The notes beneath the pieces were generated by a model. It had not been told where the DNA came from, did not search any database, and saw nothing but the letters and a program-made list of their open reading frames with translations. A program made the position numbers and the translations under genes. Below are positions 1 through 18,151 of a stretch of DNA of 64,000 nucleotides, in pieces. Source of the stretch: Microbacterium sp. SY138 (GTDB lineage: Bacteria; Actinomycetota; Actinomycetes; Actinomycetales; Microbacteriaceae); NCBI RefSeq assembly GCF_039729145.1, contig NZ_CP155793.1, forward strand, positions 3,534,001-3,598,000. The letters are read 5' to 3'. Position 1 is the stretch's first letter; each line of letters starts with the position of its first letter.

Positions 1-1320
1 CTGCGAGTTGTACGTGTCCATGGAGGGGAAGTGCGTGAACACCTGCGAGCCGTCGATGCCCTCCCAGAGGAACGAGTGGTGTGGGAAGACGTTCTGCTGG
101 TTCCACGAGATCTTCTGCGTGAAGAACCACTCGAAACCGGCACGGCGCATCAGCTGCGGCAGGGCGGGCGAGTAGCCGAAGCTGTCCGGCAGCCAGACCC
201 CCTTCGAGCGGATGCCGAACTCGCGCTCGAAGAACCGCTGCCCGTGCGAGAACTGCCGCACGAGCGATTCGCCGGTCGGCATCACGGTGTCGGACTCGAC
301 CCACATGCCGCCCAGCGGCAGGAATCGCCCGGAGGCGACAGCGGCCTTGACCCGCTCCCACACCTCGGGGCGGTGCTCCTTGATCCAGGCGTACTGCTGC
401 GCGCTGGACATGCCGTACTGGAACTCGGGCTGCTCGTCGATGAGCGTCGTCATCGACGAGGTCGTGCGTGCGACCTTTCGGATCGTCTCGCGCACCGGCC
501 ACAGCCAGGCCGAGTCGATGTGCGCGTGCCCGACGGCCGAGATGCGGTGCGCACTCGCCTCGGCCCGAGCGGCCAGCACCTCGGCGAGGCGGGCGCGGGC
601 GTCGGGAGCGGTCTGCACGATGTGCTGCAGATCGAGCACGTCGAGGGCATCGTCCATGGCCTGCAGGATGCGCATGCGGCGGGGCGACGTCGCCGGCAGC
701 TCGGCCTGCAGCTCGAACAGCACCTCGAGGTCGAGGGACAGGTCGAAGACCTCCTGCTCGAACACGGCCAGGTCCATCCGCCGCGCGCGGTAGAGCGGCT
801 CCTTCGAGGAGGTGAGGATGTCGCCCTCCTGCGTGGGCAGGAAGGGGTGGTAGTCGAGGAGCACCGGGTTGGACGCGGCCTCGAGGTACAGCTCGACGGG
901 CTCATCTCCCGCAGCCGTCTCGGCGATCGGAACCCACTGGTTGCGCGGATTGATGCTCTTCACGGGAATCGGGTCGCCGTCCGCGCCACCCGGGCGATAG
1001 GCCAGGGCCTCGCATTGGAAACCGGTCATGTTCACGTCGAAGCCGAGGTCGATGAGAGCTTCGACACGCCGCCCCGCCCATTCGGACGGCACCAGACCGG
1101 TGAGCTTGAACCACGTGGTGCCCCACGCGGGACCCCAGGGAGCGCCGACAGCGCCGGGCGCGTAGTCGAGGGCGAGTCCCTCCGCGGGCGCGATCGGCTC
1201 GCCGGGCAGCTCGTGGATCTCGACGTCCAACGGCACGGAGGCCGAGTGGATCGCCGGGCGGATGCGCTCTTCGAGTACGCGCTTGACGCGGCCGACGGTG
1301 AGCGAGGTGTCGTCATGCAT
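1..1320 (-). CDS. GH38 alpha-mannosidase, N-terminal 440 residues (runs off the window)
   Basis: The reverse strand reads open from an ATG at 1320 to the window edge. About residues 265-269 read GHAHID followed by SAWLW, the zinc-binding HxD of family GH38, and WLPDSFGYS puts the likely nucleophile at D379. Roughly 260 residues of a non-catalytic N-terminal domain come first, as in bacterial GH38 enzymes of about 1000 residues; the C-terminal half lies outside the window. No signal peptide is visible, so it should act in the cytoplasm, where GH38 enzymes remove alpha-1,3- or alpha-1,6-linked mannose. The start lies within the last codons of the GH20 gene (8-base overlap ATGCATGA), so the two are probably translationally coupled. 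Confidence 0.9.
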   Translation of the reverse strand, partial: MHDDTSLTVGRVKRVLEERIRPAIHSASVPLDVEIHELPGEPIAPAEGLALDYAPGAVGAPWGPAWGTTWFKLTGLVPSEWAGRRVEALIDLGFDVNMTGFQCEALAYRPGGADGDPIPVKSINPRNQWVPIAETAAGDEPVELYLEAASNPVLLDYHPFLPTQEGDILTSSKEPLYRARRMDLAVFEQEVFDLSLDLEVLFELQAELPATSPRRMRILQAMDDALDVLDLQHIVQTAPDARARLAEVLAARAEASAHRISAVGHAHIDSAWLWPVRETIRKVARTTSSMTTLIDEQPEFQYGMSSAQQYAWIKEHRPEVWERVKAAVASGRFLPLGGMWVESDTVMPTGESLVRQFSHGQRFFEREFGIRSKGVWLPDSFGYSPALPQLMRRAGFEWFFTQKISWNQQNVFPHHSFLWEGIDGSQVFTHFPSMDTYNSQ

Positions 1321-1340
1321 GGGTGGATCTCCGGGCTCGA
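1302..1340. repeat. 39-bp direct repeat, copy 1 (start region of the GH38 gene)
   Basis: This stretch matches 2884-2922 with two mismatches. It carries the ribosome-binding sequence (GGAGAT on the reverse strand), the ATG and the first six to seven codons (MHDDTSL) of the GH38 gene. Because it lies at the 3' end of the GH20 gene, it also encodes the last residues of that protein. Confidence 0.9.
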
Positions 1341-2902
1341 AGGTGGGTGGTGGCGGTCGTGTGGCTGGTGGCGGTCGTGTGGCTGGTGGATGCGGTCGTG
1401 GTGACGGCAGTCGGGACACCGATCGCCGCATCGATCGCGCAGAAGTCGTCGTGCGAGAGCGAGCTCCCTCCGTTCCAGGCGCGCTCGGCCATGGCGCGAA
1501 GTGGTCGACGGATGCCGTCTGCGACCTCGACCGGCGTCTGCGCTGCGGCATCGTCCGACCAGACCGAGAACGACGCTCCGAGGAGCCGCTGCGGATAGGG
1601 CGGCCGGATCTCCTGCCGCGCCCCGCCAGGAAGAGACGGAAACAGCCCGGGATGCCAGTCGGCTTCCCAGATGCGCTCGCTCGTCGGGTAGAGGTAGCCC
1701 GCCTTCTCTCCGAGGACGTAGTAGAACAGCGCATCGTGGAAGTTCACCAGCGGATTGCCGGCTTCGATGCCCACCCCGAGGGACGGCATCTGCGCATGCC
1801 AGTTCGTCCACCAGGTCAGCACGATGTCGTGATCGAGGACGACTTCTCCACTACGCAGCATCCCGTCGTTCCAGACCCGGGGGGCGAGCCCCTTCGCACG
1901 GAGATGCACGGCGATCTCGTTCACGAAACCCGTCAGCAGGTCGAAACCGGTGCCGGATGGCCCATGCCGCTCTCGTGCCGCTTCTGCGAGCGCGGGGTAC
2001 TCGTCGATGCGGGCGAAGTCGACGAACTCGTCTCCGCCGAGGTGCCAGTTCGTGCTGTGCGGGAACACGGCGGCGACGTCGTCGATCAGCGCCGACGCGA
2101 AGTCGATGGACTCGGCACGGGTGATGTCGAGCGCATGGTCGGTGCACGGTCCGCCAGCTGCCGGCAGCCGATGCTCCGGGTGCACGGAGAGGGCGTGGCG
2201 GAGGTGCCCTGGCATGTCGAGCGAGGGCACGAGGTCGATGTGCAGGTCAGCGGCCGCGTCCGCCACGGCCGCTGCCTCCACGCGGGTGACGTGCGCGGGG
2301 GAGACGATCTCGGGGAAGGCTGTCGACCCGATGCGGAAACCCTCGTTGTCGGAGACGTGCCACTGGAACGTCGTGATCCCGACGTCGGCGAGCGCGTGCA
2401 GCAGTGCGATGATCCACGAGGCAGCAAAGTAGCGGCGGGCGGCGTCGAGGTGGAAGCCCCGTTCCGCCACCACAGGGACCGATGACACCCGCCCCTTCGG
2501 CACCCGCCCCTGCGCGCGCAGGTTGTGCAGCAGCTGTCGCGTCGCCCGGAACGCTCCGGCGGCTCCGGCCGCCCGCACGTCGATGTCGGCGTCGACGTCG
2601 ATCTCGAACGACTCGCTGTCGCCGGCCGTGTCGCCGTCGCCGTCGGCGTCCCCGCGCCGCAGCCGAATCACCGCGGCCTCGCCGCTCGGGATGCCGAGGG
2701 CTGCGAGCTCGCCCGACAGCCGTTCCGCCTCCCGCGCGTACTCGGGCTCCTCGGCGATGACCCGTACGGATGACGGGCGCCAGGCCCCGACCCTGAGCGC
2801 GAGGGTCGTCGGCTGCGGGATCGCCAGCCATCGCGCGATCTCCTCACCTCTTGCCGACTGCAGACGAGTGCCCACCTCGGCGAGCGACGTGTCGTCATGC
2901 AT
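1313..2902 (-). CDS. GH20 beta-N-acetylhexosaminidase
   Basis: 529 residues. RGFHLDAARRYF (about 148-159), WHVSDNEGFR (181-190) and HLGGDE (287-292) are GH20 signatures; D291-E292 are the substrate-assisting Asp and the acid/base Glu. A GH20b-like domain precedes the barrel and contains an odd acidic insert (DADGDGDTAGD, about 85-95). There is no signal peptide, so it is probably cytoplasmic; in this locus it would remove terminal GlcNAc from hybrid glycans or split chitobiose. The C-terminus is a Thr/His-rich tail (SHTTAT repeated) that ends inside the start region of the downstream GH38 gene. Two LacI-type operators lie 79 and 132 bases upstream. Confidence 0.92.
   Translation of the reverse strand: MHDDTSLAEVGTRLQSARGEEIARWLAIPQPTTLALRVGAWRPSSVRVIAEEPEYAREAERLSGELAALGIPSGEAAVIRLRRGDADGDGDTAGDSESFEIDVDADIDVRAAGAAGAFRATRQLLHNLRAQGRVPKGRVSSVPVVAERGFHLDAARRYFAASWIIALLHALADVGITTFQWHVSDNEGFRIGSTAFPEIVSPAHVTRVEAAAVADAAADLHIDLVPSLDMPGHLRHALSVHPEHRLPAAGGPCTDHALDITRAESIDFASALIDDVAAVFPHSTNWHLGGDEFVDFARIDEYPALAEAARERHGPSGTGFDLLTGFVNEIAVHLRAKGLAPRVWNDGMLRSGEVVLDHDIVLTWWTNWHAQMPSLGVGIEAGNPLVNFHDALFYYVLGEKAGYLYPTSERIWEADWHPGLFPSLPGGARQEIRPPYPQRLLGASFSVWSDDAAAQTPVEVADGIRRPLRAMAERAWNGGSSLSHDDFCAIDAAIGVPTAVTTTASTSHTTATSHTTATTHLRARRSTHA
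1349..1384. repeat. 18-bp tandem repeat in the 3' end of the GH20 gene
   Basis: Two perfect 18-base units (1349-1366, 1367-1384) and a degenerate third unit encode the SHTTAT repeat near the GH20 C-terminus. It looks like slippage-prone low-complexity sequence between the catalytic domain and the copied start region of the GH38 gene. Confidence 0.85.
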
Positions 2903-2922
2903 GGGGGGATCTCCGGGCTCGA
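2884..2922. repeat. 39-bp direct repeat, copy 2 (start region of the GH20 gene)
   Basis: Partner of 1302-1340, with two mismatches. It contains the ribosome-binding site, ATG and first codons (MHDDTSL) of the GH20 gene. This is probably the parental copy, since here it sits in a normal intergenic position. Confidence 0.9.
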
Positions 2923-2980
2923 CGGTGAGGGCTGATTCGGGTCTGCTGGTGATGCGCTGCGACTGATGCTATCTGGTGTA

Positions 2981-2994
2981 CTAAAGCGATCTAG
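2981..2994. promoter_or_regulatory. Predicted LacI-type operator 1 of the N-glycan regulon
   Basis: CTAAAGCGATCTAG: CTA and TAG half-sites around a central CG, as usual for LacI-family operators. It lies between the divergent GH20 and lacI-type genes. Read on the other strand it fits CTANAWCGCTTNAG, shared by five sites between 2981 and 13080. Confidence 0.7.
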
Positions 2995-3033
2995 TCGAAG
3001 AGTCTAAGGCACGTCGGCGCTTCTTTCCCGAGG

Positions 3034-3047
3034 CTAAACCGATCAAG
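3034..3047. promoter_or_regulatory. Predicted LacI-type operator 2, next to the regulator start
   Basis: CTAAACCGATCAAG, the weakest of the five related sites. It ends 14 bases before the start codon of the LacI-type gene at 3062, a position that would let the regulator control its own synthesis. Confidence 0.55.
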
Positions 3048-3061
3048 TAGGGTGAGGGACT

Positions 3062-4093
3062 ATGAGCCCGGCGAAACGCGTGACGATCGCCGATATCGCG
3101 CGCATGGCGGGGGTCTCCCCCGGTGCGGTGTCGTTCGCGCTGAACGGCCGCCCCGGCGTGAGCGACGAGACCAGGCATCGCATCCTCACGATCGTCGAGG
3201 AGAACGGCTGGCAGCCGAGCTCCGCGGCGCGGGCACTCGTCGGGGCCCGCGCGAACACGGTCGGATTCGCCCTCGCCCGCCCCGCCCGCTCCCTCGGCTC
3301 CGAGGCCTTCTTCACCGACCTGATCGCGGGCATCGAGTCGCGGCTGTCGGAGAGCAAGGTGAGCCTGCAGTTGCGACTGGTCGCCGACATCGCGGAGGAG
3401 ATGGAGGTGCACCGCCAGTGGCGCTCCTCCAACCAGGTCGACGGCTTCATCTTCATCGACCCCCGCGACGACGACCCGCGCATCGGACGCATCGAGGCCC
3501 TCGACGCGCGCGCCGTCATGATCGGGTCCGAGCCCTCCCCCGAAGGCTCGGTGCCGAGCGTCTGGATCGGCGACGACACGGTCGCCGAGACCCTCTTCTC
3601 CTACCTCGCCGCCCTCGGCCACGCCCGCATCGCCTACGTGGCCGGTCCGGCCGAACTCGAGCACACCCGACTGCGCGCCGAGGTGCTCGAGCGCATGACC
3701 GTCGACGGCCTCGAGGGCGAGGTCATCACGACCGACTTCTCCCCCGCCCGCGCCTCTGCCGTGACGCGGGCGCTGCTGTCGGGCCGGCAGCGTCCGACGG
3801 CGATCGTCTACGACAATGACGTGATGGCCGTCGCCGGCCTGCGCGTCGCGCAGGAGATGGGACGCGCGGTTCCGCGCGACGTCTCGCTCGCCTCGTTCGA
3901 CGACTCGGTGATCGCCGGTCTGATCAACCCCTCGATCACGGCGATGACGCGCGACACCTTCGAGCTCGGCGAACGCGCCGCCACTCTCCTGCTGCAGCAG
4001 ATCGAGGCGGGAGCCAACCTGCCCAGCGTCGAGGGTCCGACACCCGTGCTCACCGCGCGCGAGAGCACGGCCCCGCCCTCCCGCCTCGGGTGA
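3062..4093 (+). CDS. LacI-family transcriptional regulator of the N-glycan locus
   Basis: 343 residues, the usual LacI/GalR length. The N-terminus carries the helix-turn-helix (VTIADIARMAGVSPGAVSF, about 7-25) and hinge helix, followed by a periplasmic-binding-protein-like effector domain ending in the family's ITAM-type segment (about 300). It is transcribed away from the GH20/GH38 genes and converges with the GH5 gene, 7 bases apart. The identical palindromic sites before the GH20, GH5, transporter and Endo H-like genes make it the likely local repressor, presumably relieved by a glycan fragment. That assignment is inference. Confidence 0.93.
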   Translation: MSPAKRVTIADIARMAGVSPGAVSFALNGRPGVSDETRHRILTIVEENGWQPSSAARALVGARANTVGFALARPARSLGSEAFFTDLIAGIESRLSESKVSLQLRLVADIAEEMEVHRQWRSSNQVDGFIFIDPRDDDPRIGRIEALDARAVMIGSEPSPEGSVPSVWIGDDTVAETLFSYLAALGHARIAYVAGPAELEHTRLRAEVLERMTVDGLEGEVITTDFSPARASAVTRALLSGRQRPTAIVYDNDVMAVAGLRVAQEMGRAVPRDVSLASFDDSVIAGLINPSITAMTRDTFELGERAATLLLQQIEAGANLPSVEGPTPVLTARESTAPPSRLG

Positions 4094-4100
4094 GCCGCCC

Positions 4101-5414
<1,314 letters not shown>

Positions 5415-5460
5415 TCAGGCCTTTCGGACATGCCCTTCGGCGAGGGCGGATTTCGCACCA

Positions 5461-5474
5461 CTATAACGCTTGAG
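5461..5474. promoter_or_regulatory. Predicted LacI-type operator 3 (GH5 gene)
   Basis: CTATAACGCTTGAG fits CTANAWCGCTTNAG exactly. It lies 50 bases upstream of the reverse-strand GH5 gene, in the intergenic region shared with the sugar transporter operon. Confidence 0.7.
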
Positions 5475-5561
5475 CAACAGGTGATCCACCCTGCGATGCC
5501 GGTCACCGGTATTCCGTCGACGGACCGTCTTGACAGGGAGGGGATCGGATGGTTTCATCTG

Positions 5562-5575
5562 CTAAAGCGTTGTAG
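5562..5575. promoter_or_regulatory. Predicted LacI-type operator 4 (transporter operon)
   Basis: CTAAAGCGTTGTAG, whose complement fits the same consensus. It lies 68 bases upstream of the binding-protein gene and 88 bases from operator 3, so one regulator could control both divergent units. Confidence 0.7.
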
Positions 5576-5642
5576 TCCCCGGTGTGCGCAGGCCGCTGAT
5601 CCGGACGTCACGCGGATTCGCCCGCCTCGAGGAAGAAGCACG

Positions 5643-6944
5643 ATGAAAGTTCCCACACGCATTGTCGCTCTGGCAGCATTCAGCATCGGCGTTCTGGCGC
5701 TGACGAGTTGCACGGGAGGCGGGGGCTCTTCCGGCGCCTCGGGCCCCATCGACACCTCGGGCGAGCTCAGCGGCACGATCCAGTTCCAGACATGGTCGCT
5801 CAAGAACGAGAAGTTCACTCCCTATTTCGAAAACCTGATCGATGCCTTCGAGAAGGAGCACCCCGACGTCACCGTCGAGTGGCTCGACCAGCCGGGCGAC
5901 GGCTACCAGGACAAGATCCTGAGCCAGGCGAACGCCGACACTCTTCCGGACGTGCTGAACCTCCCGCCCGACATCGCCTACCCGCTGGTGGCGGCGGGCA
6001 AGCTGGTCGACCTGGAGACCGCCGACCCCGACCTGAAGTCGGGCTACAACACCGGCGCCTGGGAGGCCTACAGCCAGTACCCCGGCATGGAAGGCACCTA
6101 CGGGCTGCCGTGGTACCTCTCCAGCGACGCGTCCTGGTGGAACCTCGCCCAGCTCGCTCCCTTCGGCGTCACCCAGGAGAACCTCCCGACCACCGTCGAC
6201 GAACTCCTCACGCTCGCGAAGGACGTGGCGACGGAGTCCGGCGGAAAGGTGCAGCTCCTCTCCTCCATCCCGGCGCTGGACACCTTCACTGCCGCCGGCA
6301 TGGAGGTCATCAACGACAAGGGCGAGTTCGACTTCAACACCGACGAGGCCGCCGCGATCATCGACAAGTACGCCGACGCGTACGCGGCGGGCGCGATGCC
6401 CGCCGAGGCGTTGACCGGCGACTACGGCGGGAATGCGGAGGCGTACATCCAGGAGAAGGTCGCCTTCACGACCGGCGGCACCGGTTTCACGACCGATCTG
6501 CAGAAGGACGCACCGGCACTGCTCGAGAGCACGGTGGCCACGCCGCGGCTCGGCATCGCGCCCCTGTACGTGCAGGGCCTCAACGTCTCGGCCGACTCCG
6601 ACAACAAGGAAGCCGCACTCGCATTCGCGGAGTTCGCGACGAACCAGGAGAACCAGGTGGCCTTCTCGTCGCTCGCCGTCGGCACCGCCCCCGGCACCGC
6701 CGAAGGCGGCGACGAGGTCGTCGACAACATCGCCTCCACCGTCACCGACGAGAAGCAGCTCTCGGCGATCGATACCGTCTTCGGCGCGATGAAGGACGCC
6801 AAGGCGCTGCCGTTCCAGTGGACCTCCGACATGGCCACCTACATGACCCAGCAGATCGCCCTCGCCGTCAACGGCGAGGCGGACTCCAAGGCCCAGCTCG
6901 ACAAGATCGTCGAGTACGCCAACGCCAACCGCGTGGACAAGTAA
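5643..6944 (+). CDS. ABC transporter sugar-binding lipoprotein (N-glycan locus)
   Basis: 433 residues. The ATG at 5643 is chosen because it gives a proper lipoprotein signal (LALTSC, lipidated C23) and follows a purine-rich ribosome-binding sequence; the same frame is open far upstream but has no coding character. The mature protein is a family 1 extracellular solute-binding protein (ITVEW- and IAYPL-type segments, Trp/Tyr-rich cleft). It heads an operon with two permeases and the GH92 gene and probably binds the oligosaccharide released by the Endo H-like enzyme. It sits outside the membrane, anchored by lipid. Confidence 0.93.
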   Translation: MKVPTRIVALAAFSIGVLALTSCTGGGGSSGASGPIDTSGELSGTIQFQTWSLKNEKFTPYFENLIDAFEKEHPDVTVEWLDQPGDGYQDKILSQANADTLPDVLNLPPDIAYPLVAAGKLVDLETADPDLKSGYNTGAWEAYSQYPGMEGTYGLPWYLSSDASWWNLAQLAPFGVTQENLPTTVDELLTLAKDVATESGGKVQLLSSIPALDTFTAAGMEVINDKGEFDFNTDEAAAIIDKYADAYAAGAMPAEALTGDYGGNAEAYIQEKVAFTTGGTGFTTDLQKDAPALLESTVATPRLGIAPLYVQGLNVSADSDNKEAALAFAEFATNQENQVAFSSLAVGTAPGTAEGGDEVVDNIASTVTDEKQLSAIDTVFGAMKDAKALPFQWTSDMATYMTQQIALAVNGEADSKAQLDKIVEYANANRVDK

Positions 6945-6947
6945 GCC

Positions 6948-7874
6948 ATGCGTGCGAACACCGGCATCCGGGCCGGCAGGAAGACGATGAGAACCCATCG
7001 GTGGTTCACACCCTGGCTGCTCCTCGGGCCCGCCGTCGCCTGGGTGCTGGTGTTCGCGCTCTGGCCCTTCCTGAACACGGTCTTCCTCAGCTTCACCGAT
7101 GCCCGGCCGCTGCGGAACCCCGAGTTCGTGGGCGGGGCGAACTACGAGCGCATGTTCGGCGACGAGATGTTCTGGAACGCCCTGACGACGTGCCTCATCT
7201 ACGTCGTCGTGTGCGTGCCGCTGCTCACGATCCTCCCGCTGCTGCTGGCGCTGCTCGTGCAGAAGAAGCTCCCCGGCATCTCGTTCTTCCGCACCACCTT
7301 CTACTTCCCTGTGATCGCCTCGGTGGTCGTGGTCGCCCTCATCTGGACCTGGCTGTTCGACAGCCGTGGCATCATCAACCAGACGCTCGAGTTCCTCGGG
7401 CTGATCGACAAGCCGATGGCGTTCCTCGTCGACCGCTGGCTGCTGCTCGGCTGCGCCATCCTGCTCACGGTCTGGAAGGGCCTGGGCTACTACATGGTCG
7501 TGTACCTCGCGGCGCTCGGGAACGTCGGCAAGGAGCTGCACGAGGCCGCGATGCTCGACGGCGCCGGCTCGTTCCGCCGGTTCCTGTCCGTCACCATCCC
7601 CTCCGTGCGCGGCGCGATGCTGCTCATCTCGGTGCTCATCGCCGTGTCGGCGATGAGGGTCTTCGCCGAGCTCGACGTGCTGTCCAAGAGCACGGGCGGT
7701 CCCGGCGGATACGACATGTCGCTCGTGATGCTCATCCGTCAGGTGGGATCCGGTCTCAACGGGAACATCGGGTACGCCTCCGCCATCAGCGTGGCGCTGT
7801 TCCTGCTCACCCTCATCCCGCTCGTCGCGATCGCCGTCATGAATCGCGAGAAGAAGGCGAAGGTCTCCGCATGA
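6948..7874 (+). CDS. ABC sugar permease, MalF/UgpA type
   Basis: 308 residues with six predicted membrane helices. The EAA loop (EAAMLDGAGSFRRF, about 199-212), which contacts the ATPase, marks a binding-protein-dependent carbohydrate permease. It starts 3 bases after the binding-protein stop and its own stop overlaps the next start (ATGA). No ATP-binding subunit is encoded nearby; actinobacterial sugar importers usually share a distant MsiK-type ATPase. Confidence 0.93.
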   Translation: MRANTGIRAGRKTMRTHRWFTPWLLLGPAVAWVLVFALWPFLNTVFLSFTDARPLRNPEFVGGANYERMFGDEMFWNALTTCLIYVVVCVPLLTILPLLLALLVQKKLPGISFFRTTFYFPVIASVVVVALIWTWLFDSRGIINQTLEFLGLIDKPMAFLVDRWLLLGCAILLTVWKGLGYYMVVYLAALGNVGKELHEAAMLDGAGSFRRFLSVTIPSVRGAMLLISVLIAVSAMRVFAELDVLSKSTGGPGGYDMSLVMLIRQVGSGLNGNIGYASAISVALFLLTLIPLVAIAVMNREKKAKVSA

Positions 7875-8806
7875 GCACGCTCACGCCACCCCGTTCAGCG
7901 GAAGACGTCCGCGCCTCCGAGGAGCCGGCTGCACCGACCCGCGAGCGCATGTTCCGCCGCCGCGGCTCCGGCGACTTCAGCAAGCCGACCCTCGGCGGGC
8001 TGATCGGCCGATACGCGCTCCTCCTCTTCGTCCTCGTGATCGTCATCGGGCCGTTCCTCTGGCAGCTGTCGACCTCGTTCAAGGGCGCCCAGGAGAACAT
8101 CTACTCCTTCCCGCCCGAGCTCATCCCGCGCGAGCCGACCCTGCAGAACTACACCAGGGTCGCCGACATCGTCCCGGTGTACCTGTACGCCTGGCACTCG
8201 CTGCTCGTCTCGGTCGGCACGGTCATCAGCAACGTGGTCCTGGCCACCTTCGCGGGCTACGCGCTGGGCTGCATGCGGTTCCGCGGCAAGTGGATCGTCA
8301 TGGGGATCCTGCTCTCGACGCTGCTCTTCCCCGGCGAGGTCACGGTGACGAGCAACTTCCTCACGATCCGCGCCCTGGGCCTGGCCGACACCCTCTGGGG
8401 CGTCTTCCTCCCCGGCGCGATCAGCGCGATGAACGTGCTGTTGATCGCCACCGCCTGCCGCATGATCCCGAAGGACGTGCTGGATGCGGCGACCGTCGAC
8501 GGTGCGACGACCTGGCAGCGCATCCGGCACATCGTGTGGCCGAACATCCGCGGCATGGTCTCGGTGGTCGCGATCTTCGCCTTCATCGGCGCCTGGGACG
8601 ACTACCTCTGGCCGCTGATCGTGCTGTCCGACCCGTCGAAGTACACGCTGACGGTCGGGATGGCCTACCTGAACAGCAGCTTCTCGGTCGACCCGCGTCT
8701 GATCGCGGCCGGCACCATGATCGCTCTCGTGCCGATCGTCATCATGTTCTCGTTCACGCAGCGGTTCTTCTTCAAGGGCGTGCAGGAGGGCGCGATCAAG
8801 GGGTGA
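7871..8806 (+). CDS. ABC sugar permease, MalG/UgpE type
   Basis: 311 residues: a cytoplasmic N-terminus of about 45 residues, six membrane helices and the EAA loop DAATVDGATTWQRI. It pairs with the preceding permease, with which it overlaps by 4 bases, and its stop overlaps the GTG start of the GH92 gene (GTGA at 8803-8806). This tight coupling ties import directly to the first intracellular mannosidase. Confidence 0.93.
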   Translation: MSTLTPPRSAEDVRASEEPAAPTRERMFRRRGSGDFSKPTLGGLIGRYALLLFVLVIVIGPFLWQLSTSFKGAQENIYSFPPELIPREPTLQNYTRVADIVPVYLYAWHSLLVSVGTVISNVVLATFAGYALGCMRFRGKWIVMGILLSTLLFPGEVTVTSNFLTIRALGLADTLWGVFLPGAISAMNVLLIATACRMIPKDVLDAATVDGATTWQRIRHIVWPNIRGMVSVVAIFAFIGAWDDYLWPLIVLSDPSKYTLTVGMAYLNSSFSVDPRLIAAGTMIALVPIVIMFSFTQRFFFKGVQEGAIKG

Positions 8807-11800
8807 GCGCCGTGCATCTCACGCCGGCGGACGGGCCGGCAGATCCCCCGTCGTCCCGTCCCCGCTCGGGTGTGCTGTCGAGCCCGGTGCACGCCTTCGT
8901 GTTCGACCCCTCCGCCGGCGAGCAGCGGATCGACGTCCCGGGGTTCGACGATCTCGAGATCACCCCGGACACCGTGCTGCACTGGGCGTTCTACGCCGAC
9001 GGTCCCGATGCGACCCTGGCCCCGCACGCGGCCCTCGCCGTGACCGTCGACGTGCGCCTCGCCGACGGCACCCGACTGAGCGATGTCGCCGCCGTGCGCG
9101 ACCGCTACGACTTCCCTGTCACGGCGCACGCACAGTTCGACGCCCGGTGGAGCCTGCCCGAGCAGTGGAACGCCGACACCGTCTCGCTCGCCCCTTCGGC
9201 ACGCCGCCGCGGTGTGGTCGAGCTCGTGCTCGGCACCGCTTCGCTTTTCCACGCCGCGGACCTCCCCGCCCGATGCACGGGCTACGTGCAGGTCGAGGTC
9301 GAGCAGAAGACGCCGACGCCGGCCGACGTCGCCCCCGTCGAACGCGTCGACACCCGACGCGGCTCGCACTCCGGCCCGCGGTTCTCGCGCGGCAACACCA
9401 TCCCGGCGGTCGCCCTCCCCCACGGATTCACGTTCGTCACGCCGTCGACCGATGCGGAGGACTCCCGCTGGCCCTACCGCCCCTTCGTGCACGACGACCC
9501 GCAGGGGCGTCGTCTCGAAGCCCTGCAGTTCTCCCATCAGCCGAGCCCCTGGATCGGCGATCGTTCCGTGCTGCAGCTGATGCCGTTCCTCGGCACGCCC
9601 ACCTCGCACCGCGCCGGCCGCCGCCGCTGGATCACTCGCGGTTCCGAGCGTGCGCGACCGCACGAGTACGCGGCGGAGCTCGGCGACGGCCTGCGCGTCG
9701 AGATGACCGCGACCGCGCACGGGGCCGTCTTCCGCGTGCACAGCGCAGACCCCGATGCCCCGGTCGGCTTCGTCATCGACCAGCTCACCGACGACGGGCA
9801 CCTCGCCTGGACGGACGCCGAAGGATTCGAGGGGTGGATCCCGGAGGGATCCGAGGAGTGGGGGAACGCTCCCCGGTGCTACTTCGCGGGCGCCATCCTG
9901 CCTGCCAGGGGCGACGTGCAGGGGGCCGTGGGGGCTCCCGAGCACGGCCCGCTCGATGACGACGGACGCGGCGAGGTCGCGGGCTACGTCGCCGGACGCG
10001 GATCGCTCGAGGTGCGGATCGGCCTCTCCTTCCTGTCGGTGGAGCAGGCCCGGCATGCTCTGCAGACCGAGGCACCGCCCTCGGTGGCCTACGAGGAACT
10101 GCGAGACGCCGGCGCCGCCTCGTGGAATCGGCTGCTGTCGCGCGTGACGATCCCGCCGCTGCCCGACGCCGACCTTCCGTATCGCACGCTCGCCGACGAA
10201 GAGCATCGCTCCCGGATCGCCGGGGCGTTGCACCGCATGCACCTGTACCCCAACAGCGCGGCCGAGAACGTGGGCACCCCGGAGACGCCCGCCTGGCGGT
10301 TCGCCGATGTGTTCGCCGCACGACACCCCTCGGGCGAGGGTGCACCGGCCGTCGACGGGGAGCTCGTCGTGAACAACGGGTACTGGGACACCTATCGCAC
10401 GGAGTGGCCGGCGCTCGCCCTGCTCGATCCGGGGCTCGCCGGTACGCTGCTCGACGGCCAGCTCGAGCAGTATCGCCGCGGAGGGTGGATGGCGAGATGG
10501 AGCGCGCCGGGGTACGTCGACAGCATGGTCGGCACCTCGAGCGACCAGATCTTCGCCGACGCGGCCCGCTGGGGCGTGGAGTTCGACCGGGTCGGCGCAT
10601 TCGAGAGCGGGTGGCGGAACGCCTGCGAGCCGGGGCCGGACGCACGCCGCGGGCGCAAGGGCATCGCGAGGGGCCGATTCACGGGGTATATCTCCGCGGA
10701 CGTACCGGAGGGCATGAGCTGGAGCATCGAGAACGCGGTGAGCGATGCCGCACTCGGCCGCTTCGCCGCGCAGCGGGCTTCCGACGTCGGATCCGGATCG
10801 GAATCAGCACGCTATCGATCCTTCGCCCGGTACTTCGCGAATCGATCCCGGTCGTATCGCACACTGTTCGACGAGGGCACGGGGTTCTTCCGGGGAAGGG
10901 ACGACAGCGGTGCGCGCACCCCCGGATTCGATCCGCGATCCTGGGGCGGAGACAACGTCGAGACGAATGCCTGGGGCATGTCGGTCGGGGCTGTGCACGA
11001 CGGAGCAGGCATCGCCGAGCTCTACGGGGGTCCAGCGGGCTTCGGCCGCCACCTCGACGCCCTCTTCGCGGAGCCGGAGACCGCGGACGAACGGTTCGGC
11101 GGCGCGTACGGCACCGTCATCCACGAGCAACGCGAGGCGAGGGCGCTGCGTTCCGGGATGTGCGCGATCTCGAACCAGCCCGCTCACCACATCCCCTTCA
11201 TGTACGCGTTCAGCGATCGCCCGTGGCGGTCGGCGCCCCTCGTGAACGAGCTCGCCGGACGGCTGTTCGCCGGCGGGCACATCGGCCAGGGTTTCCCCGG
11301 CGACGAGGACAACGGCGAGATGAGCGCGTGGTGGCTGTGGGCGGCGCTCGGGCTGTACCCGCTCGAGCTCGCCTCCGGACATCTGCGGATCGGATCACCG
11401 CTCTTCGACGACATCCGCGTGGATCGCGGCGACGGCTCTACCCTGCGCATCCGGTCCCGACGCTCCTCCCCCTCGGCCCACGTGCTGCAGGAGGCGCGAC
11501 TCGACGGGGCTCCCATGGCGTCGGCCACGCTGCCGATCGACGCTCTCGCCGGCGACGTCGTGCTCGACCTGGTCTTCGGCGACGACCCCGTGTGCGCGCT
11601 CGAGACCGGCGAGCCGACTCCGCGCGACACCCCCGAACCCTGGCGCGCGGACCTGACTTCGACCGGGGGCGAGGTCATCTCCTCCGTGGCGCTCGCGCAC
11701 CCCGAGCGCGTCTTCGACGACGGGGATCCGGCGGGGGATCCCGGCGTCACCCTCCGCGCCGGGGAATGGGTCGGGTGGCGGTTCCCCGAGCCGCGCGGCG

Positions 11801-12033
11801 TCAGCGACCTCAGTGTGACGACGACGGCCGCCTCGAACTCGTCTGCACTGGGCTGGGAGATCCTGGGAGCGGACGAGAACTGGACTCCCGTGACGACGAC
11901 GCATCAGGAGGCTCTGCTTCGCGATCGCACGACGCCGTTCACGCTCACCGACCGGGTCGTGACCCCGGCGCTCCGCGTGCGTGCGGAGGCCGAGGTCACG
12001 ATCCGTCAGCTCGAGGTGTTCGATCTGGACTGA
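8803..12033 (+). CDS. GH92 alpha-mannosidase, cytoplasmic
   Basis: 1076 residues from the GTG at 8803, which has AGGAGG 13 bases upstream; a second GTG at 8812 is possible. The (alpha/alpha)6 catalytic part contains GFPGDEDNGEMSAWW, with D834-E-D836-N the conserved acidic cluster of calcium-dependent GH92 mannosidases, followed by LGLYP. An N-terminal beta-rich segment (about 20-200) and a C-terminal beta module of about 110 residues (galactose-binding-like) extend it beyond the usual 750 residues. No signal peptide. GH92 enzymes remove alpha-1,2-, 1,3- or 1,6-linked mannose, so it should trim imported high-mannose chains. Last gene of the operon. Confidence 0.92.
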   Translation: MSAVHLTPADGPADPPSSRPRSGVLSSPVHAFVFDPSAGEQRIDVPGFDDLEITPDTVLHWAFYADGPDATLAPHAALAVTVDVRLADGTRLSDVAAVRDRYDFPVTAHAQFDARWSLPEQWNADTVSLAPSARRRGVVELVLGTASLFHAADLPARCTGYVQVEVEQKTPTPADVAPVERVDTRRGSHSGPRFSRGNTIPAVALPHGFTFVTPSTDAEDSRWPYRPFVHDDPQGRRLEALQFSHQPSPWIGDRSVLQLMPFLGTPTSHRAGRRRWITRGSERARPHEYAAELGDGLRVEMTATAHGAVFRVHSADPDAPVGFVIDQLTDDGHLAWTDAEGFEGWIPEGSEEWGNAPRCYFAGAILPARGDVQGAVGAPEHGPLDDDGRGEVAGYVAGRGSLEVRIGLSFLSVEQARHALQTEAPPSVAYEELRDAGAASWNRLLSRVTIPPLPDADLPYRTLADEEHRSRIAGALHRMHLYPNSAAENVGTPETPAWRFADVFAARHPSGEGAPAVDGELVVNNGYWDTYRTEWPALALLDPGLAGTLLDGQLEQYRRGGWMARWSAPGYVDSMVGTSSDQIFADAARWGVEFDRVGAFESGWRNACEPGPDARRGRKGIARGRFTGYISADVPEGMSWSIENAVSDAALGRFAAQRASDVGSGSESARYRSFARYFANRSRSYRTLFDEGTGFFRGRDDSGARTPGFDPRSWGGDNVETNAWGMSVGAVHDGAGIAELYGGPAGFGRHLDALFAEPETADERFGGAYGTVIHEQREARALRSGMCAISNQPAHHIPFMYAFSDRPWRSAPLVNELAGRLFAGGHIGQGFPGDEDNGEMSAWWLWAALGLYPLELASGHLRIGSPLFDDIRVDRGDGSTLRIRSRRSSPSAHVLQEARLDGAPMASATLPIDALAGDVVLDLVFGDDPVCALETGEPTPRDTPEPWRADLTSTGGEVISSVALAHPERVFDDGDPAGDPGVTLRAGEWVGWRFPEPRGVSDLSVTTTAASNSSALGWEILGADENWTPVTTTHQEALLRDRTTPFTLTDRVVTPALRVRAEAEVTIRQLEVFDLD

Positions 12034-12076
12034 GCACTCGAGACGGCACGTGGCCGGCTCGCGGCACATGGCCGGA

Positions 12077-13003
12077 TCACGGCGCAGCCGTGTACTGCGT
12101 CGCCTCTCCCTTGAGCTGCTGCGTGATCCCGGACAGCAGCGCGGACTGGTCCGTCGCGGTGAGGTTGTACGCGACGTACACGCCGTACCCGTCGGCCACC
12201 GTGCGCTCGGCGAAGTCCGCGGCCGTCGACGAGCTCACGTTCGCGAGGTCGATCGCCGCAGCCCCGAGGCGGGTCTTGTCCCCGAAGCCCGGGATGGTCG
12301 GCGCGTCGTACGTGGGGTAGTACGGGTTCCAGGCGTAGTCGATCACGCCCGCGACGTCGAACAGGCTGAAGTCGGTCACGGTGTACGTCTCGCCGATCGC
12401 GTACAGGCTGATGATCTTGTCGGGGCCCAGGCGATCGCGGAGAGCCGTCGCCAGCCATCCGAACGACTGCGCGTTGGGCTGCGGCGTGCCGTCGACTCCG
12501 TACTGCGCGTACTCGTCATCGAAGTCGATGCCGTCGAGCCCGTAGGTCGTCACCGCGTCGGCGAGTTGGGCGGCGAAGGCATCGGCTTCTTCGTACGAGG
12601 TGAAGTTCGCGAATCCCGCCCCCTGATGGTTGCCGAGCACGGAGAGCAGCACCTTGGTGCCGCGCGCCTGCACAGGGCGGATCTGGTTCTCGGCATCGTC
12701 GAGCGTCGCGGTGACGCGGTCGTTGAAGTGCAGGTATGCCTTCTCGCCGTCGTAGTTGATGTTGGCGGCGAAGATGATCGCCATGTCGACGGCGGGCGTG
12801 CCCGAATCCGCCAGCGTGTAGTCGGCCACGTTCGCTAAATCGTTCGAGTTCACCTCGACGTACGCCACCACCTTCGGATCGGTCGCGGGGCTCTCGGCGA
12901 CAGCCGGCGAGGCGGCGACGGCTCCTACCGTGGCGAGCGCCACCCCGGCGAGCGCCGCGAGCCCCTTTCGGAACCGGTGAATCTTGACGTGTGACTGAGT
13001 CAT
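12077..13003 (-). CDS. Secreted GH18 endo-beta-N-acetylglucosaminidase, Endo H-like
   Basis: 308 residues with a Sec signal peptide (basic MTQSHVKIHRFRK, hydrophobic stretch, cleavage near ASPAVA-ES, about 37). The GH18 motif DGIDFDDE occupies 157-164, with D162 and E164 catalytic. VAYVEVNSN, FAANINYDG, LLSVLGNHQGAGFANF and the GYGVYVAYNL segment near the C-terminus closely follow Streptomyces Endo H, which cuts between the two core GlcNAc residues of high-mannose and hybrid N-glycans. It is the only glycosidase here with an export signal, so it should act outside the cell and feed the ABC importer. AGGAG lies upstream of its start and a LacI-type operator 64 bases upstream. Confidence 0.93.
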   Translation of the reverse strand: MTQSHVKIHRFRKGLAALAGVALATVGAVAASPAVAESPATDPKVVAYVEVNSNDLANVADYTLADSGTPAVDMAIIFAANINYDGEKAYLHFNDRVTATLDDAENQIRPVQARGTKVLLSVLGNHQGAGFANFTSYEEADAFAAQLADAVTTYGLDGIDFDDEYAQYGVDGTPQPNAQSFGWLATALRDRLGPDKIISLYAIGETYTVTDFSLFDVAGVIDYAWNPYYPTYDAPTIPGFGDKTRLGAAAIDLANVSSSTAADFAERTVADGYGVYVAYNLTATDQSALLSGITQQLKGEATQYTAAP

Positions 13004-13066
13004 GGCTGATCGTCTCCTTCATCATCGATATCGAGATCAGGCCGCTTCGGTGCGACCTGCGGCTGA

Positions 13067-13080
13067 CTATATCGCTTAAG
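13067..13080. promoter_or_regulatory. Predicted LacI-type operator 5 (Endo H-like gene)
   Basis: CTATATCGCTTAAG, an exact fit to CTANAWCGCTTNAG. It lies 64 bases upstream of the Endo H-like start and puts the secreted enzyme in the same predicted regulon as the importer and the intracellular glycosidases, 7.5 kb from the nearest other copy. Confidence 0.7.
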
Positions 13081-13206
13081 TGGACGGAGGTGAAGAAGTC
13101 GATGAAGTGGATGATTCTCTCCTCCTGCACCGGAGCCGCAGGAGGCGACCTCCCCACAACGACTGGGTACGTCACCCACGGACACCGGAATACCGCGACA
13201 ACCTGG

Positions 13207-13326
13207 CCGCTCCTCTCGGCGCGCATCGACGGCATCGACGGTCGACTCGGACGCATCGAATCGACGCTCGGCGACCTCGACACGGAGCTGACGAATCTCG
13301 CGACGCGTTTCTGGCGATCGCAGTAG
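13207..13326 (+). pseudogene. Truncated copy of the small membrane coiled-coil protein at 16700-16990
   Basis: The frame ends in NLATRFWRSQ, identical to the C-terminus of the 96-residue protein at 16700-16990, after a similar coiled-coil segment (RIDGIDGRLGRIESTL). No start codon or membrane helix precedes it. The upstream block (13184-13206) also matches the region before the intact gene (16664-16686), so the promoter-proximal part and the 3' end remain while the N-terminal coding half is deleted. The rest of the 335-base gap to the isomerase gene holds the Endo H-like promoter and nothing else I recognise. Confidence 0.75.
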
Positions 13327-13338
13327 CTCCCGAGCCGA

Positions 13339-14973
13339 TCAGACCGCCACGTCTCCCACCAGGTTGACCTTGATGCCCATGCCGGCGAACATCGCGGCCT
13401 TCGCGATCAGGGCCTTGTCGGCCGTCTCGGCATCCGGGGCGTAGACCAGCTGCGCGTGGTTGGCCTTGTGGCGGGCCATGAACTGGTCACGCGAGATGCC
13501 GTGCAGCACCACGTGCGCGATCGGCCATTCCGGGTTGGTGGCGTCCTTGCGCCGCTGCGTCTCCTCGGCAGGAAGCTCGACGACCGAGGCGCGGAAGATG
13601 TCGGCCTGCAGGATCCCCTCGGCGATGAACACCCGCGACAGCACGATCTCACCCGGCTTCGAGACGCCGTTGATGGTCGCACCGCCGGCCGGGAAGAACA
13701 CGTGGCCCTGGCGCCAGCCCTCGGCGTTCTGCCACCCGCCCAGGTGCGAGGCGGGCACCGAGCCGGAGATCTCGTAGACCCAGACGAACTGCCCGTCGTA
13801 GTCCTCACCCCAGCGCACGTCGTGCAGGGTGTTGTCGGGCACGAGACCCATCGCGCGCCACACCCGGTCGGTCACGAGCGCGTCGACCGCGACCCCCTCG
13901 TCGGCTTCGTTGAAGTGCGGGAACGCGCGCCCCTCGTGCAGCACGCGTGAGCCGTCGCGCGAGGTGACGGGCGGCCGCTCGGTCGAGTTCAGGATGCCCT
14001 CGGCCAGGTCCGACGCCGGCACCAGGTCCTTGAGCCCCTGCTGGTACTGGATGCCGACCGCATCGAGTCCGAAGTCGTCGGCGATGCGGAGCGCGGCGAT
14101 GTACATCTTCAGCTGCCACTGCACCTGTTCGCGCGTGAGCTCGGTGACGGCGTCGTCGCCGTAGCGGAACGTCATGCCCGCATCGATCAGCCAGTCGTAG
14201 GCGGCATCCGCCTCGTCCTCGGTGACGTTCAGCATCTCGGCGTACAGCGCCGACTGCGACAGCCGCTCCTTGTAGATGCCGGTCCCGTTGAGCAGCTCGT
14301 CGTCGAAGATCGCGTTGTACATGCCCATGCATCCTTCGTCGAAGACCCCGATGATCGCCTTCTCGGCGCGCAGCTCGGCCGCGAGCGCCTCACCCAGCTG
14401 CTTCTCGGGGCTCTCCGGCAGTGCGGGCAGTGCGCGCACGTGCGAGGCGTCGTGGGCGATGGCACCGGTCTCGGTCCATTCCCTGATGCCGTCGGTGAAC
14501 CACTGATCGGTGAAGTCGACCGACCACGTCGTCGCATAGGGCTTGTCCATCTTGGTCAGACCCGCGTTCAGCCCGAGCAGCCCGACGAGTCCGGGCCAGT
14601 CCCCCGCGAAGTTCGCGACGGTGAGGATCGGCCCCTCATGCGACCGCAGACCGGCGAGCACGTGGTGGGAGTACTGCCAGTTGGCGATGGCGACGACGAG
14701 GGGAGCATCGACGGGAATGCTCTTGAACACCTCGAGTCCCATCCGCTGGCTCGAGATGAAGCCATGGCCGGTCTCGGGGTCGACGCCGAACGGGCGGATG
14801 ACTTCCCAGCCGAGCGCGTTCAGCACACCGGTCACGCCGCTCTCCAGCTCGACCTGCGTCGGCCAGCCGGCGACGTTCGCCGACTCGCGCAGGTCTCCGG
14901 ACGTGATGATGTATGCCGTCTTCGGCGCGGTGGCCGGACGGGTCGCCGGCGTCGGCAGGGTGTAGGTGGTCAT
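13339..14973 (-). CDS. L-fucose/L-arabinose isomerase-family protein
   Basis: 544 residues. The fold and motifs (NFAGDWPGLVGLLGLNAGL, FDEGCMGMYNA, IADDFGLDAVGIQYQQGLKDL, and acidic/His metal-ligand candidates) match the fucose-isomerase-like family, which interconverts aldoses and ketoses in a metal-dependent way. It is shorter than E. coli FucI (about 590). The ATG at 14973 is chosen because it overlaps the stop of the upstream FGGY kinase (ATGA). The pair suggests isomerisation then phosphorylation of a pentose or 6-deoxyhexose; the exact sugar cannot be told from sequence. Confidence 0.82.
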   Translation of the reverse strand: MTTYTLPTPATRPATAPKTAYIITSGDLRESANVAGWPTQVELESGVTGVLNALGWEVIRPFGVDPETGHGFISSQRMGLEVFKSIPVDAPLVVAIANWQYSHHVLAGLRSHEGPILTVANFAGDWPGLVGLLGLNAGLTKMDKPYATTWSVDFTDQWFTDGIREWTETGAIAHDASHVRALPALPESPEKQLGEALAAELRAEKAIIGVFDEGCMGMYNAIFDDELLNGTGIYKERLSQSALYAEMLNVTEDEADAAYDWLIDAGMTFRYGDDAVTELTREQVQWQLKMYIAALRIADDFGLDAVGIQYQQGLKDLVPASDLAEGILNSTERPPVTSRDGSRVLHEGRAFPHFNEADEGVAVDALVTDRVWRAMGLVPDNTLHDVRWGEDYDGQFVWVYEISGSVPASHLGGWQNAEGWRQGHVFFPAGGATINGVSKPGEIVLSRVFIAEGILQADIFRASVVELPAEETQRRKDATNPEWPIAHVVLHGISRDQFMARHKANHAQLVYAPDAETADKALIAKAAMFAGMGIKVNLVGDVAV

Positions 14974-16505: not shown

Positions 16506-16559
16506 GGAGTCCTCCTCGTGCCCGGACGACGGAGTCCGGGCTTCATCGCCACTTTACGC

Positions 16560-16571
16560 GAAATCGATTTC
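16560..16571. promoter_or_regulatory. Candidate LacI-family operator before the kinase-isomerase operon
   Basis: GAAATCGATTTC is a perfect 12-base palindrome with a central CG, a common LacI-family half-site arrangement. The nearest regulators are the LacI-type gene at 17008-17994 and the DeoR-type gene at 18152-18949; the former is the likelier partner. It differs from the five N-glycan-locus sites. Confidence 0.55.
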
Positions 16572-16699
16572 ATGACGCAAGGCGCGAGTCGTCCTGCACC
16601 ACTCACGCCGAAGGGTGATGCGCCCACCGACCGCAGCTTTCTGGCTGACCAGGACCGGAATACCGTGACATTCTGGGCACCCCGAATCAGACTGGAGGC

Positions 16700-16990
16700 A
16701 TGCGCTTGGACGACCCGCAGGTATGGACGCTGATCGGCGTGTTCACGACCATGATGCTCGGCGGCATGACCCTCATGACGATGCAGTTCAGCCGGGTGAT
16801 CCGCGCCGAGGTCGGTGGCCTGCGCGGCGAGCTGCGGGGCGAGATCGGCGGACTGCGCGGCGATCTGAGCGGGCGGCTGGAGAGTCTCGAGGGCCGGCTC
16901 ACCGGCCGCATCGACGCCCTGGAGCACAAGGTCGACAGCCTCGACAAAGAGGTGGCGAACCTCGCGACGCGGTTCTGGCGCTCGCAGTAG
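16700..16990 (+). CDS. Small membrane-anchored coiled-coil protein
   Basis: 96 residues. One membrane helix (about 8-28, VWTLIGVFTTMMLGGMTLM) is followed by a charged coiled coil to the end, with GLRGELRGEIGGLRGDLSGR in an 11-residue-type pattern and the terminus NLATRFWRSQ. No function is recognised; the build is that of a short tethered stalk. A decayed paralogue lies at 13207-13326, and both share an upstream block (accggaataccgYgaca) that may hold the promoter. It stands alone, converging with the LacI-type gene. Confidence 0.75.
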   Translation: MRLDDPQVWTLIGVFTTMMLGGMTLMTMQFSRVIRAEVGGLRGELRGEIGGLRGDLSGRLESLEGRLTGRIDALEHKVDSLDKEVANLATRFWRSQ

Positions 16991-17007
16991 CCGGCCCGAC
17001 CGCCCGC

Positions 17008-17994: not shown

Positions 17995-18071
17995 GCGCTC
18001 CTCTGCTTCCCGCCGACTGCTGCTGCCCCGGCTCGCCCGCCGACAACGCCCGGATGATGCGGCAGCCGGGT

Positions 18072-18089: not shown

Positions 18090-18151
18090 GTATCGCGCGG
18101 CGCCGGCGGCGCACCCGTCGGCTGCTCCGCCGTCCCGAGTACGCTGAGGGG

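What the first reader, a model, noticed from the sequence alone, without database searches (positions are those of the whole stretch)
1..13080. Apparent complete N-glycan harvesting locus: secreted Endo H-like enzyme, dedicated importer and intracellular exoglycosidases
One secreted GH18 enzyme closely resembling Endo H, one sugar ABC importer, and GH92, GH38, GH20 and GH5_18-like enzymes without signal peptides form a logical route: cut high-mannose glycan from protein outside, import it with its single GlcNAc, trim alpha-mannose, split Man-beta-1,4-GlcNAc. Each family has a known activity that fits one step. This resembles bifidobacterial and Bacteroides N-glycan loci, but uses a LacI/ABC logic with an Endo H-type enzyme.
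Basis: partly seen in the sequence, partly recalled or inferred. Interest (0 to 1): 0.85.

Follow-up and report, generated by a model that had tools for sequence, protein, structure and literature searches.

The report
Endo H-based N-glycan feeding locus
A Microbacterium carries a nine-gene set, probably switched on together, that looks built to cut mannose-rich sugar chains off glycoproteins with a secreted Endo H enzyme, import them and take them apart inside the cell; it is a new version of a known kind of sugar-feeding locus.

Summary
In detail: a secreted Endo H-type GH18, a lipoprotein/two-permease ABC importer, a LacI regulator, and GH38, GH20, GH5_18 and GH92 enzymes without signal peptides. 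GH38 runs 1.7 kb past the window's left edge. (1) A near-palindrome, CTNAAGCGNTNTAG, lies in front of every transcription unit, Endo H included; these four are the only exact sites in the genome, and the site recurs in Microbacterium and Curtobacterium loci. (2) In 198 Microbacterium genomes all 27 with Endo H also have GH5_18, 25 of 27 within 16 kb. (3) Around a LacI/GH38/GH5_18 core the outer parts come in two matched sets: Endo H+GH92, or EndoS-type GH18+GH20, each with its own binding protein; the GH5_18 tree needs at least five switches. Active-site residues support high-mannose release, alpha-1,2-mannosidase and Man-beta-1,4-GlcNAc hydrolysis. The kind is known: C. acnes and B. longum have related loci, and the M. 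oxydans GH5_18 is in the PDB (9y4v). I call it a new variant; function is inferred, not shown.

The parts
1..1320 (-). GH38 alpha-mannosidase, N-terminal part (gene continues to about -1700 outside the window); no signal sequence
   Evidence: Pfam GH38N, 38C, middle and C2 domains; best PDB relatives 7ufr/7ufu/7ufs/7uft alpha-mannosidases, 689-785 bits; read from L004
1313..2902 (-). GH20, predicted exo-beta-N-acetylhexosaminidase, cytoplasmic; accessory
   Evidence: Pfam GH20; RGFHLDAAR segment and GGDE motif (GGDE); overlaps the GH38 start by 8 nt; about 40 nt around the start codon duplicated from GH38 or the reverse
2981..2994 (+). operator-like site CTAAAGCGATCTAG between GH20/GH38 and LacI
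3062..4093 (+). LacI-family regulator
   Evidence: Pfam LacI plus Peripla_BP_3
4101..5411 (-). GH5_18 exo-beta-1,4-mannosidase (Man-beta-1,4-GlcNAc), cytoplasmic
   Evidence: PDB 9y4v from M. oxydans, 95% identical; E150 and E265 invariant in 14 rows. No Pfam or NCBIfam match at E 0.001
5461..5474 (-). operator-like site CTCAAGCGTTATAG in front of GH5_18
5562..5575 (+). operator-like site CTAAAGCGTTGTAG in front of the SBP
5643..6944 (+). ABC importer binding lipoprotein (family 1 SBP)
   Evidence: Pfam SBP_bac_8; lipobox LTSC; AlphaFold2 mean pLDDT 87.7; Foldseek hits to oligosaccharide binders
6948..7874 (+). ABC importer permease A
   Evidence: Pfam BPD_transp_1
7871..8806 (+). ABC importer permease B
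   Evidence: Pfam BPD_transp_1; NCBIfam MalG-like below cut-off
8803..12033 (+). GH92, predicted alpha-1,2-mannosidase; start GTG 8803 or 8812; no signal sequence
   Evidence: Pfam GH92/GH92N, NCBIfam TIGR01180 over cut-off; acid, bases and +1 triad of NnGH92 (7nsn) conserved in the alignment
12077..13003 (-). secreted Endo H-type GH18 endo-beta-N-acetylglucosaminidase
   Evidence: NCBIfam Endoglyc_H equivalog 364.8 bits, cut-off 300; Endo H 1edt E 2.1e-86
13067..13080 (-). operator-like site CTTAAGCGATATAG; overlaps a -10-like TATAGT of a promoter-like match

Best explanation
This is a LacI-controlled locus for feeding on high-mannose (and probably hybrid) N-glycans. Endo H-type GH18 is secreted and cuts between the two core GlcNAc units. 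The SBP/two-permease importer, powered by an ATPase encoded elsewhere, brings in the ManxGlcNAc oligosaccharide. Inside, GH92 removes alpha-1,2-mannose, GH38 the alpha-1,3/1,6 branches, and GH5_18 splits Man-beta-1,4-GlcNAc. GH20, a recent add-on, would remove antennary GlcNAc from hybrid glycans. LacI holds the promoters down, including that of Endo H, until an imported sugar releases it. Shown by computation: family membership, catalytic residues, location signals, operator-like sites, conserved linkage. Inferred: ligand of the importer, inducer, repression, order of steps, growth benefit.
For: Endo H equivalog model passed; Endo H residues F44, D130, E132, Y133, Y168 are all matched in the alignment with 1edt (F44, Y133 and Y168 named in PMC3408457, passages; D130/E132 recalled). 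GH92 keeps the NnGH92 acid E944, bases D1056/D1058 and +1 triad W477-H996-E997 that the paper ties to alpha-1,2 specificity. GH5_18 is 95% identical to 9y4v and keeps the glutamate that is mutated in the Man-beta-1,4-GlcNAc complex 7lr8. The 4 exact sites in the genome all lie in this locus; 0 of 100 shuffles of the window gave as many matches. Exact site upstream of Endo H in 20 of 23 Microbacterium loci; a site with at most one mismatch in the LacI/SBP gap of 12 of 12 linked Curtobacterium loci. Endo H was found only in genomes with GH5_18, 27 of 27 of 198 searched, Fisher p 1.8e-17 without correction for kinship. In one related locus a GH85 stands beside GH5_18 instead (L112).
Against: No ATPase gene identified in the locus (one MalK-type elsewhere). 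SBP ligand not readable from sequence or fold: the 50 best folds bind other things at 15-24% identity (sequence search). GH20 is not needed for the route. One GH38 must take all alpha-1,3 and alpha-1,6 mannose, where B. longum has three GH38 and a GH125 in one operon (PMC10154615, passages). 31 of 58 GH5_18 genomes have no Endo H match, and two loci keep GH92 and the same type of SBP without Endo H in the 20 kb fetched (L094, L095). L034 and L035 have no site upstream of Endo H. No expression or growth data.
Confidence: 0.85

Rival explanations
1. The locus takes up free N-glycans (for example plant ones already carrying one GlcNAc) or fungal mannoprotein fragments; Endo H is secondary.
For: L094 and L095 keep the same type of importer, GH92, GH38 and GH5_18 with no Endo H in the 20 kb fetched, no Endo H in the genome (G126 and G135 are not among the 27 matches) and no GH85. 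NnGH92, the nearest GH92 structure, is discussed in its paper also for yeast mannan.
Against: Endo H has the shared site and in L034 and L035 lies in the same direction just behind GH92. No secreted mannanase family appeared in the locus proteins scanned.
Confidence: 0.12
2. The GH18 acts on chitin or chito-oligosaccharides and its neighbourhood is incidental.
For: GH18 holds many chitinases, and weak chitinase matches appear.
Against: Endo H match E 2.1e-86 against 1.2e-9 or worse for chitinases; NCBIfam equivalog; linkage and shared site.
Confidence: 0.03
3. GH20 splits a chitobiose core GlcNAc-GlcNAc rather than trimming antennae, so the locus also takes glycans with both core GlcNAc units.
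For: This is the role proposed for the C. acnes GH38/GH5_18/GH20 triad (PMC6160142, passages).
Against: Endo H-type and EndoS-type enzymes both cut inside the chitobiose (established for the families), yet GH20 accompanies EndoS-type places 9 of 9.
Confidence: 0.3

Closest known systems
Cutibacterium acnes N-glycan-processing locus 1 (PMC6160142; passages seen)
   Same: GH38 and GH5_18 without signal peptides, GH20, a GH18 of presumed endo activity, SBP, permeases, transcriptional regulator
   Different: Its GH18 is listed without signal peptide and nearest to EndoT; a figure legend names an ATP-binding gene; no GH92 in the passages seen. Here a secreted Endo H-type GH18, GH92 and no ATPase gene identified
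Bifidobacterium longum high-mannose pathway (Cordeiro et al.; primary paper not held; seen through passages of the review PMC10154615)
   Same: Release outside, import of the whole glycan, mannosidases inside; the GH38 here is nearest to 7ufr-7uft (attribution of these entries to B. longum is recalled) and the GH5_18 is 47-51% identical to the B. longum structures
   Different: Three GH38 plus a GH125 in one operon there; one GH38 plus GH92 here; Endo H-type release enzyme here
Bacteroides thetaiotaomicron high-mannose PUL (PMC10154615, passages)
   Same: GH18 with GH92 enzymes, whole glycan imported
   Different: ABC importer and LacI here; no SusC/SusD pair among the identified genes
Streptomyces plicatus Endo H (1edt)
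   Same: Catalytic domain over its whole length, active-site residues
   Different: Endo H homologues of other genera, most of them Streptomyces, had no GH5_18, GH38 or SBP match over 200 bits in the fetched flanks (0 of 44)
M. oxydans DSM 20578 GH5_18, PDB 9y4v, released 2025-12-17
   Same: 95% identical to the GH5_18 of this locus; two M. oxydans records (L022, L023) carry the same locus
   Different: No paper naming the entry found in the library

Membership tests
Endo H-type GH18 endo-beta-N-acetylglucosaminidase | passes the Endo H equivalog model | tested here: met
   NF045482 364.8 bits, cut-off 300
Endo H-type GH18 endo-beta-N-acetylglucosaminidase | catalytic D130/E132 and substrate-lining F44, Y133, Y168 | tested here: met
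   alignment with 1edt; F44, Y133, Y168 named in passages of PMC3408457, D130/E132 recalled
Endo H-type GH18 endo-beta-N-acetylglucosaminidase | secreted | tested here: met
   hydrophobic N-terminus and AVA-type cleavage site; hydropathy only, no dedicated predictor
Endo H-type GH18 endo-beta-N-acetylglucosaminidase | cleaves high-mannose and hybrid, not complex, N-glycans | not testable with these tools
   needs an assay
GH5_18 exo-beta-1,4-mannosidase | sequence and fold of the subfamily with both catalytic glutamates | tested here: met
GH92 alpha-1,2-mannosidase | general acid, two bases, and Trp/His-Glu +1 triad | tested here: met
GH20 lacto-N-biosidase | loss of the hexosaminidase Arg in the LDxxR segment and GADE instead of GGDE | tested here: not met
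   best PDB hits are lacto-N-biosidases, but the window protein has LDAAR and GGDE where they have CAC and GADE; the meaning of the Arg is recalled
LacI-controlled regulon | LacI gene plus a shared near-palindrome in front of every transcription unit | tested here: met
   binding itself not tested
Actinobacterial N-glycan utilisation locus (C. acnes/B. longum kind) | GH38 and GH5_18 with ABC importer genes and an endo enzyme | tested here: met
Actinobacterial N-glycan utilisation locus (C. acnes/B. longum kind) | supports growth on N-glycans | not testable with these tools
   needs culture work
Bacteroides-type PUL | SusC/SusD pair | tested here: not met
   no such domain in the locus proteins scanned with Pfam

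The most novel reading that the evidence does not exclude
Microbacterium uses one fixed N-glycan chassis (LacI, GH38, GH5_18) and exchanges the outer parts as matched sets: Endo H + GH92 + its own SBP/permeases for high-mannose glycans, or EndoS-type GH18 + GH20 (sometimes with GH29 or a sulfatase) + a different SBP for complex or antennary glycans. The class of secreted endoglycosidase would then predict the importer's ligand. The window's locus is a high-mannose version to which a GH20 of the other version has been added, which would extend it to hybrid glycans.
Probability: 0.45. Interest if true: 0.65.

Novelty: new variant of a known kind. Interest (0 to 1): 0.5.

Why it matters
Endo H is an old laboratory tool (recalled), yet the listings of my searches (open-licence library only; one search showed 10 of 1,451 papers) held no account that I recognised of a bacterium with Endo H inside a co-regulated uptake and breakdown locus. 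If right, it gives Endo H a feeding role in Microbacterium and Curtobacterium, and sister loci that differ in endoglycosidase, binding protein and trimming enzyme form a natural experiment on how an importer's specificity is matched to a secreted enzyme. It also offers Endo H and EndoS-type enzymes paired with binding proteins for glycan analysis.

Tried and rejected
Chitinase reading of the GH18: rejected. GH20 as lacto-N-biosidase, suggested by the best PDB hits: not supported by the motifs. SBP specificity from sequence or fold: nothing decisive; best matches are binders of other oligosaccharides. Downstream genes 13339-20743 as part of the locus: Pfam gives fucose-isomerase-like, FGGY kinase, DeoR, LacI and aldolases, a separate sugar cluster, and no operator-like site with up to one mismatch lies in the window beyond 13080. 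Three one-mismatch sites elsewhere in the genome lie in long open frames and are taken as chance. Sigma-70 scan: one promoter-like match in 2850-13400 against 0.7 expected; weak on its own. Kinship-aware test of the matched sets: 4 independent pairs on well-supported branches; GH92 follows Endo H in 3.8 of 4 on average, median p 0.125, which cannot reach 0.05; for GH20 the same test is not significant. Search for a paper that names 9y4v: none.
Full report
WHERE IT IS. The window is bases 3534001-3598000 of a one-contig 3.92 Mb genome. The nearest named record, Microbacterium maritypicum MF109, carries the locus at 96-100% identity for the genes inside the fetched flank (L013; GH20 only in part, GH38 not reached).

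ANATOMY. From left to right: GH38 (-), GH20 (-), site, LacI (+), GH5_18 (-), two sites, SBP lipoprotein (+), permease A (+), permease B (+), GH92 (+), Endo H-type GH18 (-), site. GH20 and GH38 overlap by 8 nt; SBP, permeases and GH92 follow each other within 3 nt or overlap. That makes five likely transcription units: GH20-GH38, LacI, GH5_18, SBP to GH92, and GH18. The GH5_18 protein had no Pfam or NCBIfam match at E 0.001 and was identified from solved structures.

ENZYMES. The GH18 passes the NCBIfam Endo H equivalog model (364.8 bits, cut-off 300) and aligns over the catalytic domain with S. plicatus Endo H at E 2.1e-86. Residues F44, D130, E132, Y133 and Y168 of Endo H all have their match. 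The GH92 is nearest to NnGH92 (7nsn, 541 bits). Its general acid, both bases and the Trp/His-Glu triad at the +1 subsite, which the NnGH92 paper ties to alpha-1,2 specificity, are conserved (passages of PMC10167667). The GH5_18 is 95% identical to 9y4v from M. oxydans and 52% to S. cattleya GH5_18 solved with Man-beta-1,4-GlcNAc. The GH38 is nearest to four alpha-mannosidase entries, 7ufr-7uft. The GH20 hits lacto-N-biosidases first but has the LDAAR and GGDE segments of exo-hexosaminidases; 17 of 20 GH20 rows show GGDE, the other 3 show no such motif in the stretch aligned (L013, L015, L103).

REGULATION. Comparing the intergenic stretches by eye gave the 14-base near-palindrome CTNAAGCGNTNTAG. 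In the window there are four matches allowing one mismatch, all exact, against 0.24 expected; 0 of 100 shuffles reached four. In the whole genome there are 7 with up to one mismatch; the four exact ones are these, and the other three lie inside long open frames. The pattern read backwards gave 48 matches in the same genome, so composition alone does not make the motif scarce or clustered here. The pattern was derived from these four sites, so the independent test is conservation. An exact site lies upstream of Endo H in 20 of 23 Microbacterium loci, one more has one mismatch, and L034 and L035 have none there; in these two Endo H lies on the same strand behind GH92. In 12 of 12 linked Curtobacterium loci a site with at most one mismatch (exact in 9) lies in the LacI/SBP gap; the unlinked thirteenth, L036, has an exact site 255 nt before its Endo H match. 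Among 44 loci of other genera, 2 (both Kribbella) have a one-mismatch site. The Endo H site overlaps a -10-like hexamer.

LINKAGE. A scan of the genome-contig collection with the GH18 found 174 relatives, of which the best 80 were kept. GH5_18 lay within the fetched flanks in 21 of 23 Microbacterium and 12 of 13 Curtobacterium loci and in 0 of 44 others, most of them Streptomyces. The two Microbacterium misses, L014 and L032, are contigs under 10 kb. In the linked Curtobacterium loci the order is LacI, SBP, permeases, GH5_18, GH38, Endo H, with no GH92. In a separate set of 198 Microbacterium genomes Endo H was found in 27 and GH5_18 in 58; all 27 are among the 58 (Fisher p 1.8e-17, not corrected for kinship). 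In 25 of 27 the two lie within 16 kb; in the other two, G023 and G030, they lie on different contigs of assemblies in 500 and 320 pieces.

TWO MATCHED SETS. Of the 61 GH5_18 places used (one fragment of 62 left out), 25 have Endo H within 16 kb, 9 an EndoS-type GH18 (PF23916), 2 a GH85, and 25 none of these. GH85 was searched in only 32 genomes: the window's own and the 31 with GH5_18 but no Endo H. GH92 (E at most 1e-100) accompanies 24 of 25 Endo H places and 0 of 9 EndoS-type places; GH20 accompanies 6 of 25 and 9 of 9 (Fisher p 1.9e-7 and 9.5e-5, not corrected for kinship). Against a perfect rule: of the 25 places with no endo enzyme found, 3 have GH92 and 6 have GH20. The two EndoS-type enzymes I read have a signal-like N-terminus. 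Among the 7 EndoS-type loci in L094-L113, a sulfatase stands in 2 (L099, L100) and a GH29 in 1 (L100); both genes also occur in L096 and L097, where no endo enzyme was seen in the fetched stretch. The SBP follows the set: 64-100% identity to the window's in Microbacterium Endo H loci, 42-47% in EndoS-type ones; exceptions are L111 and the two Curtobacterium loci used, with Endo H and 43%. On the GH5_18 tree of 56 rows the change between Endo H and EndoS-type needs at least 5 switches, so this is not one old split; 19 of 53 inner branches are weakly supported and L033, L111 and L034 are long. Independent pairs on well-supported branches are only 4, too few for significance (p 0.125). L098 was scored as Endo H from a match in the locus, although its genome G181 had none at E 1e-30; its SBP is matched in two pieces. 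In L111 the GH92 match is 36% and counts as absent but as present.

GH20 AS A NEWCOMER. About 40 nt around the start codons of GH20 and GH38 are nearly identical. In 15 near relatives (L016, L017, L019-L031) GH38 stands directly beside LacI, without GH20. The GH20 of L108 and L120 is 74-75% and their GH38 93% identical to the window's, while their GH5_18 is 72-73%. This suggests that a GH20-GH38 block has moved between the two kinds of locus.

READING. The best explanation is a co-regulated feeding locus for high-mannose N-glycans with an Endo H-type release enzyme, plus a GH20 that would add hybrid glycans. Endo H is reported to cut high-mannose and hybrid glycans only (title of a reference listed in PMC10154615). 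Importer ligand, inducer and growth are inferred, not shown.

KNOWN OR NEW. The kind is known. The C. acnes locus of 2018 has GH38, GH5_18, GH20 and GH18 with SBP, permease, regulator and ATPase genes (PMC6160142, passages). B. longum and B. thetaiotaomicron also import the whole glycan (PMC10154615, passages). Someone has already solved the GH5_18 of M. oxydans (9y4v). I saw no paper on the Microbacterium or Curtobacterium locus in the listings of seven searches of an open-licence library (of only 10 of 1,451 papers were listed); subscription papers, including the main B. longum one, were not available. I therefore file it as a new variant.

Noticed in passing
L096, L097, L099, L100, L104-L106, L108, L109, L119, L121: Sister loci with GH20 and a different SBP and no GH92; nine of these eleven carry an EndoS-type GH18, while L096 and L097 show no endo enzyme in the fetched stretch; some have GH29 or a sulfatase.
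   Followed up: partly
L112, 1003-5950 (-): A GH85 and a GH3 beside GH5_18, permeases, SBP, GH38 matched in two pieces and LacI: a third solution for the endo position.
   Followed up: partly
window 1320 and 2902: About 40 nt around the GH38 and GH20 start codons are duplicated, as if GH20 was inserted at the start of GH38.
   Followed up: partly
L037 (Enterococcus sp. ZJ1622, 43% G+C in the locus): An Endo H homologue, 57% identical, in a contig labelled Enterococcus, with none of the other genes matched; gene transfer or mislabelled record not resolved.
   Followed up: no
window 13339-20743: A second sugar cluster next door: fucose-isomerase-like protein, FGGY kinase, LacI, DeoR and two aldolases.
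   Followed up: no
L098, L103: Apparently decaying versions of the locus: SBP matched in two pieces in L098, GH38 in two pieces in L103.
   Followed up: no
G000:C1:2922412-2922555 (L093): The one OB_MalK-type ATPase match in the genome, so possibly shared by several importers.
   Followed up: no
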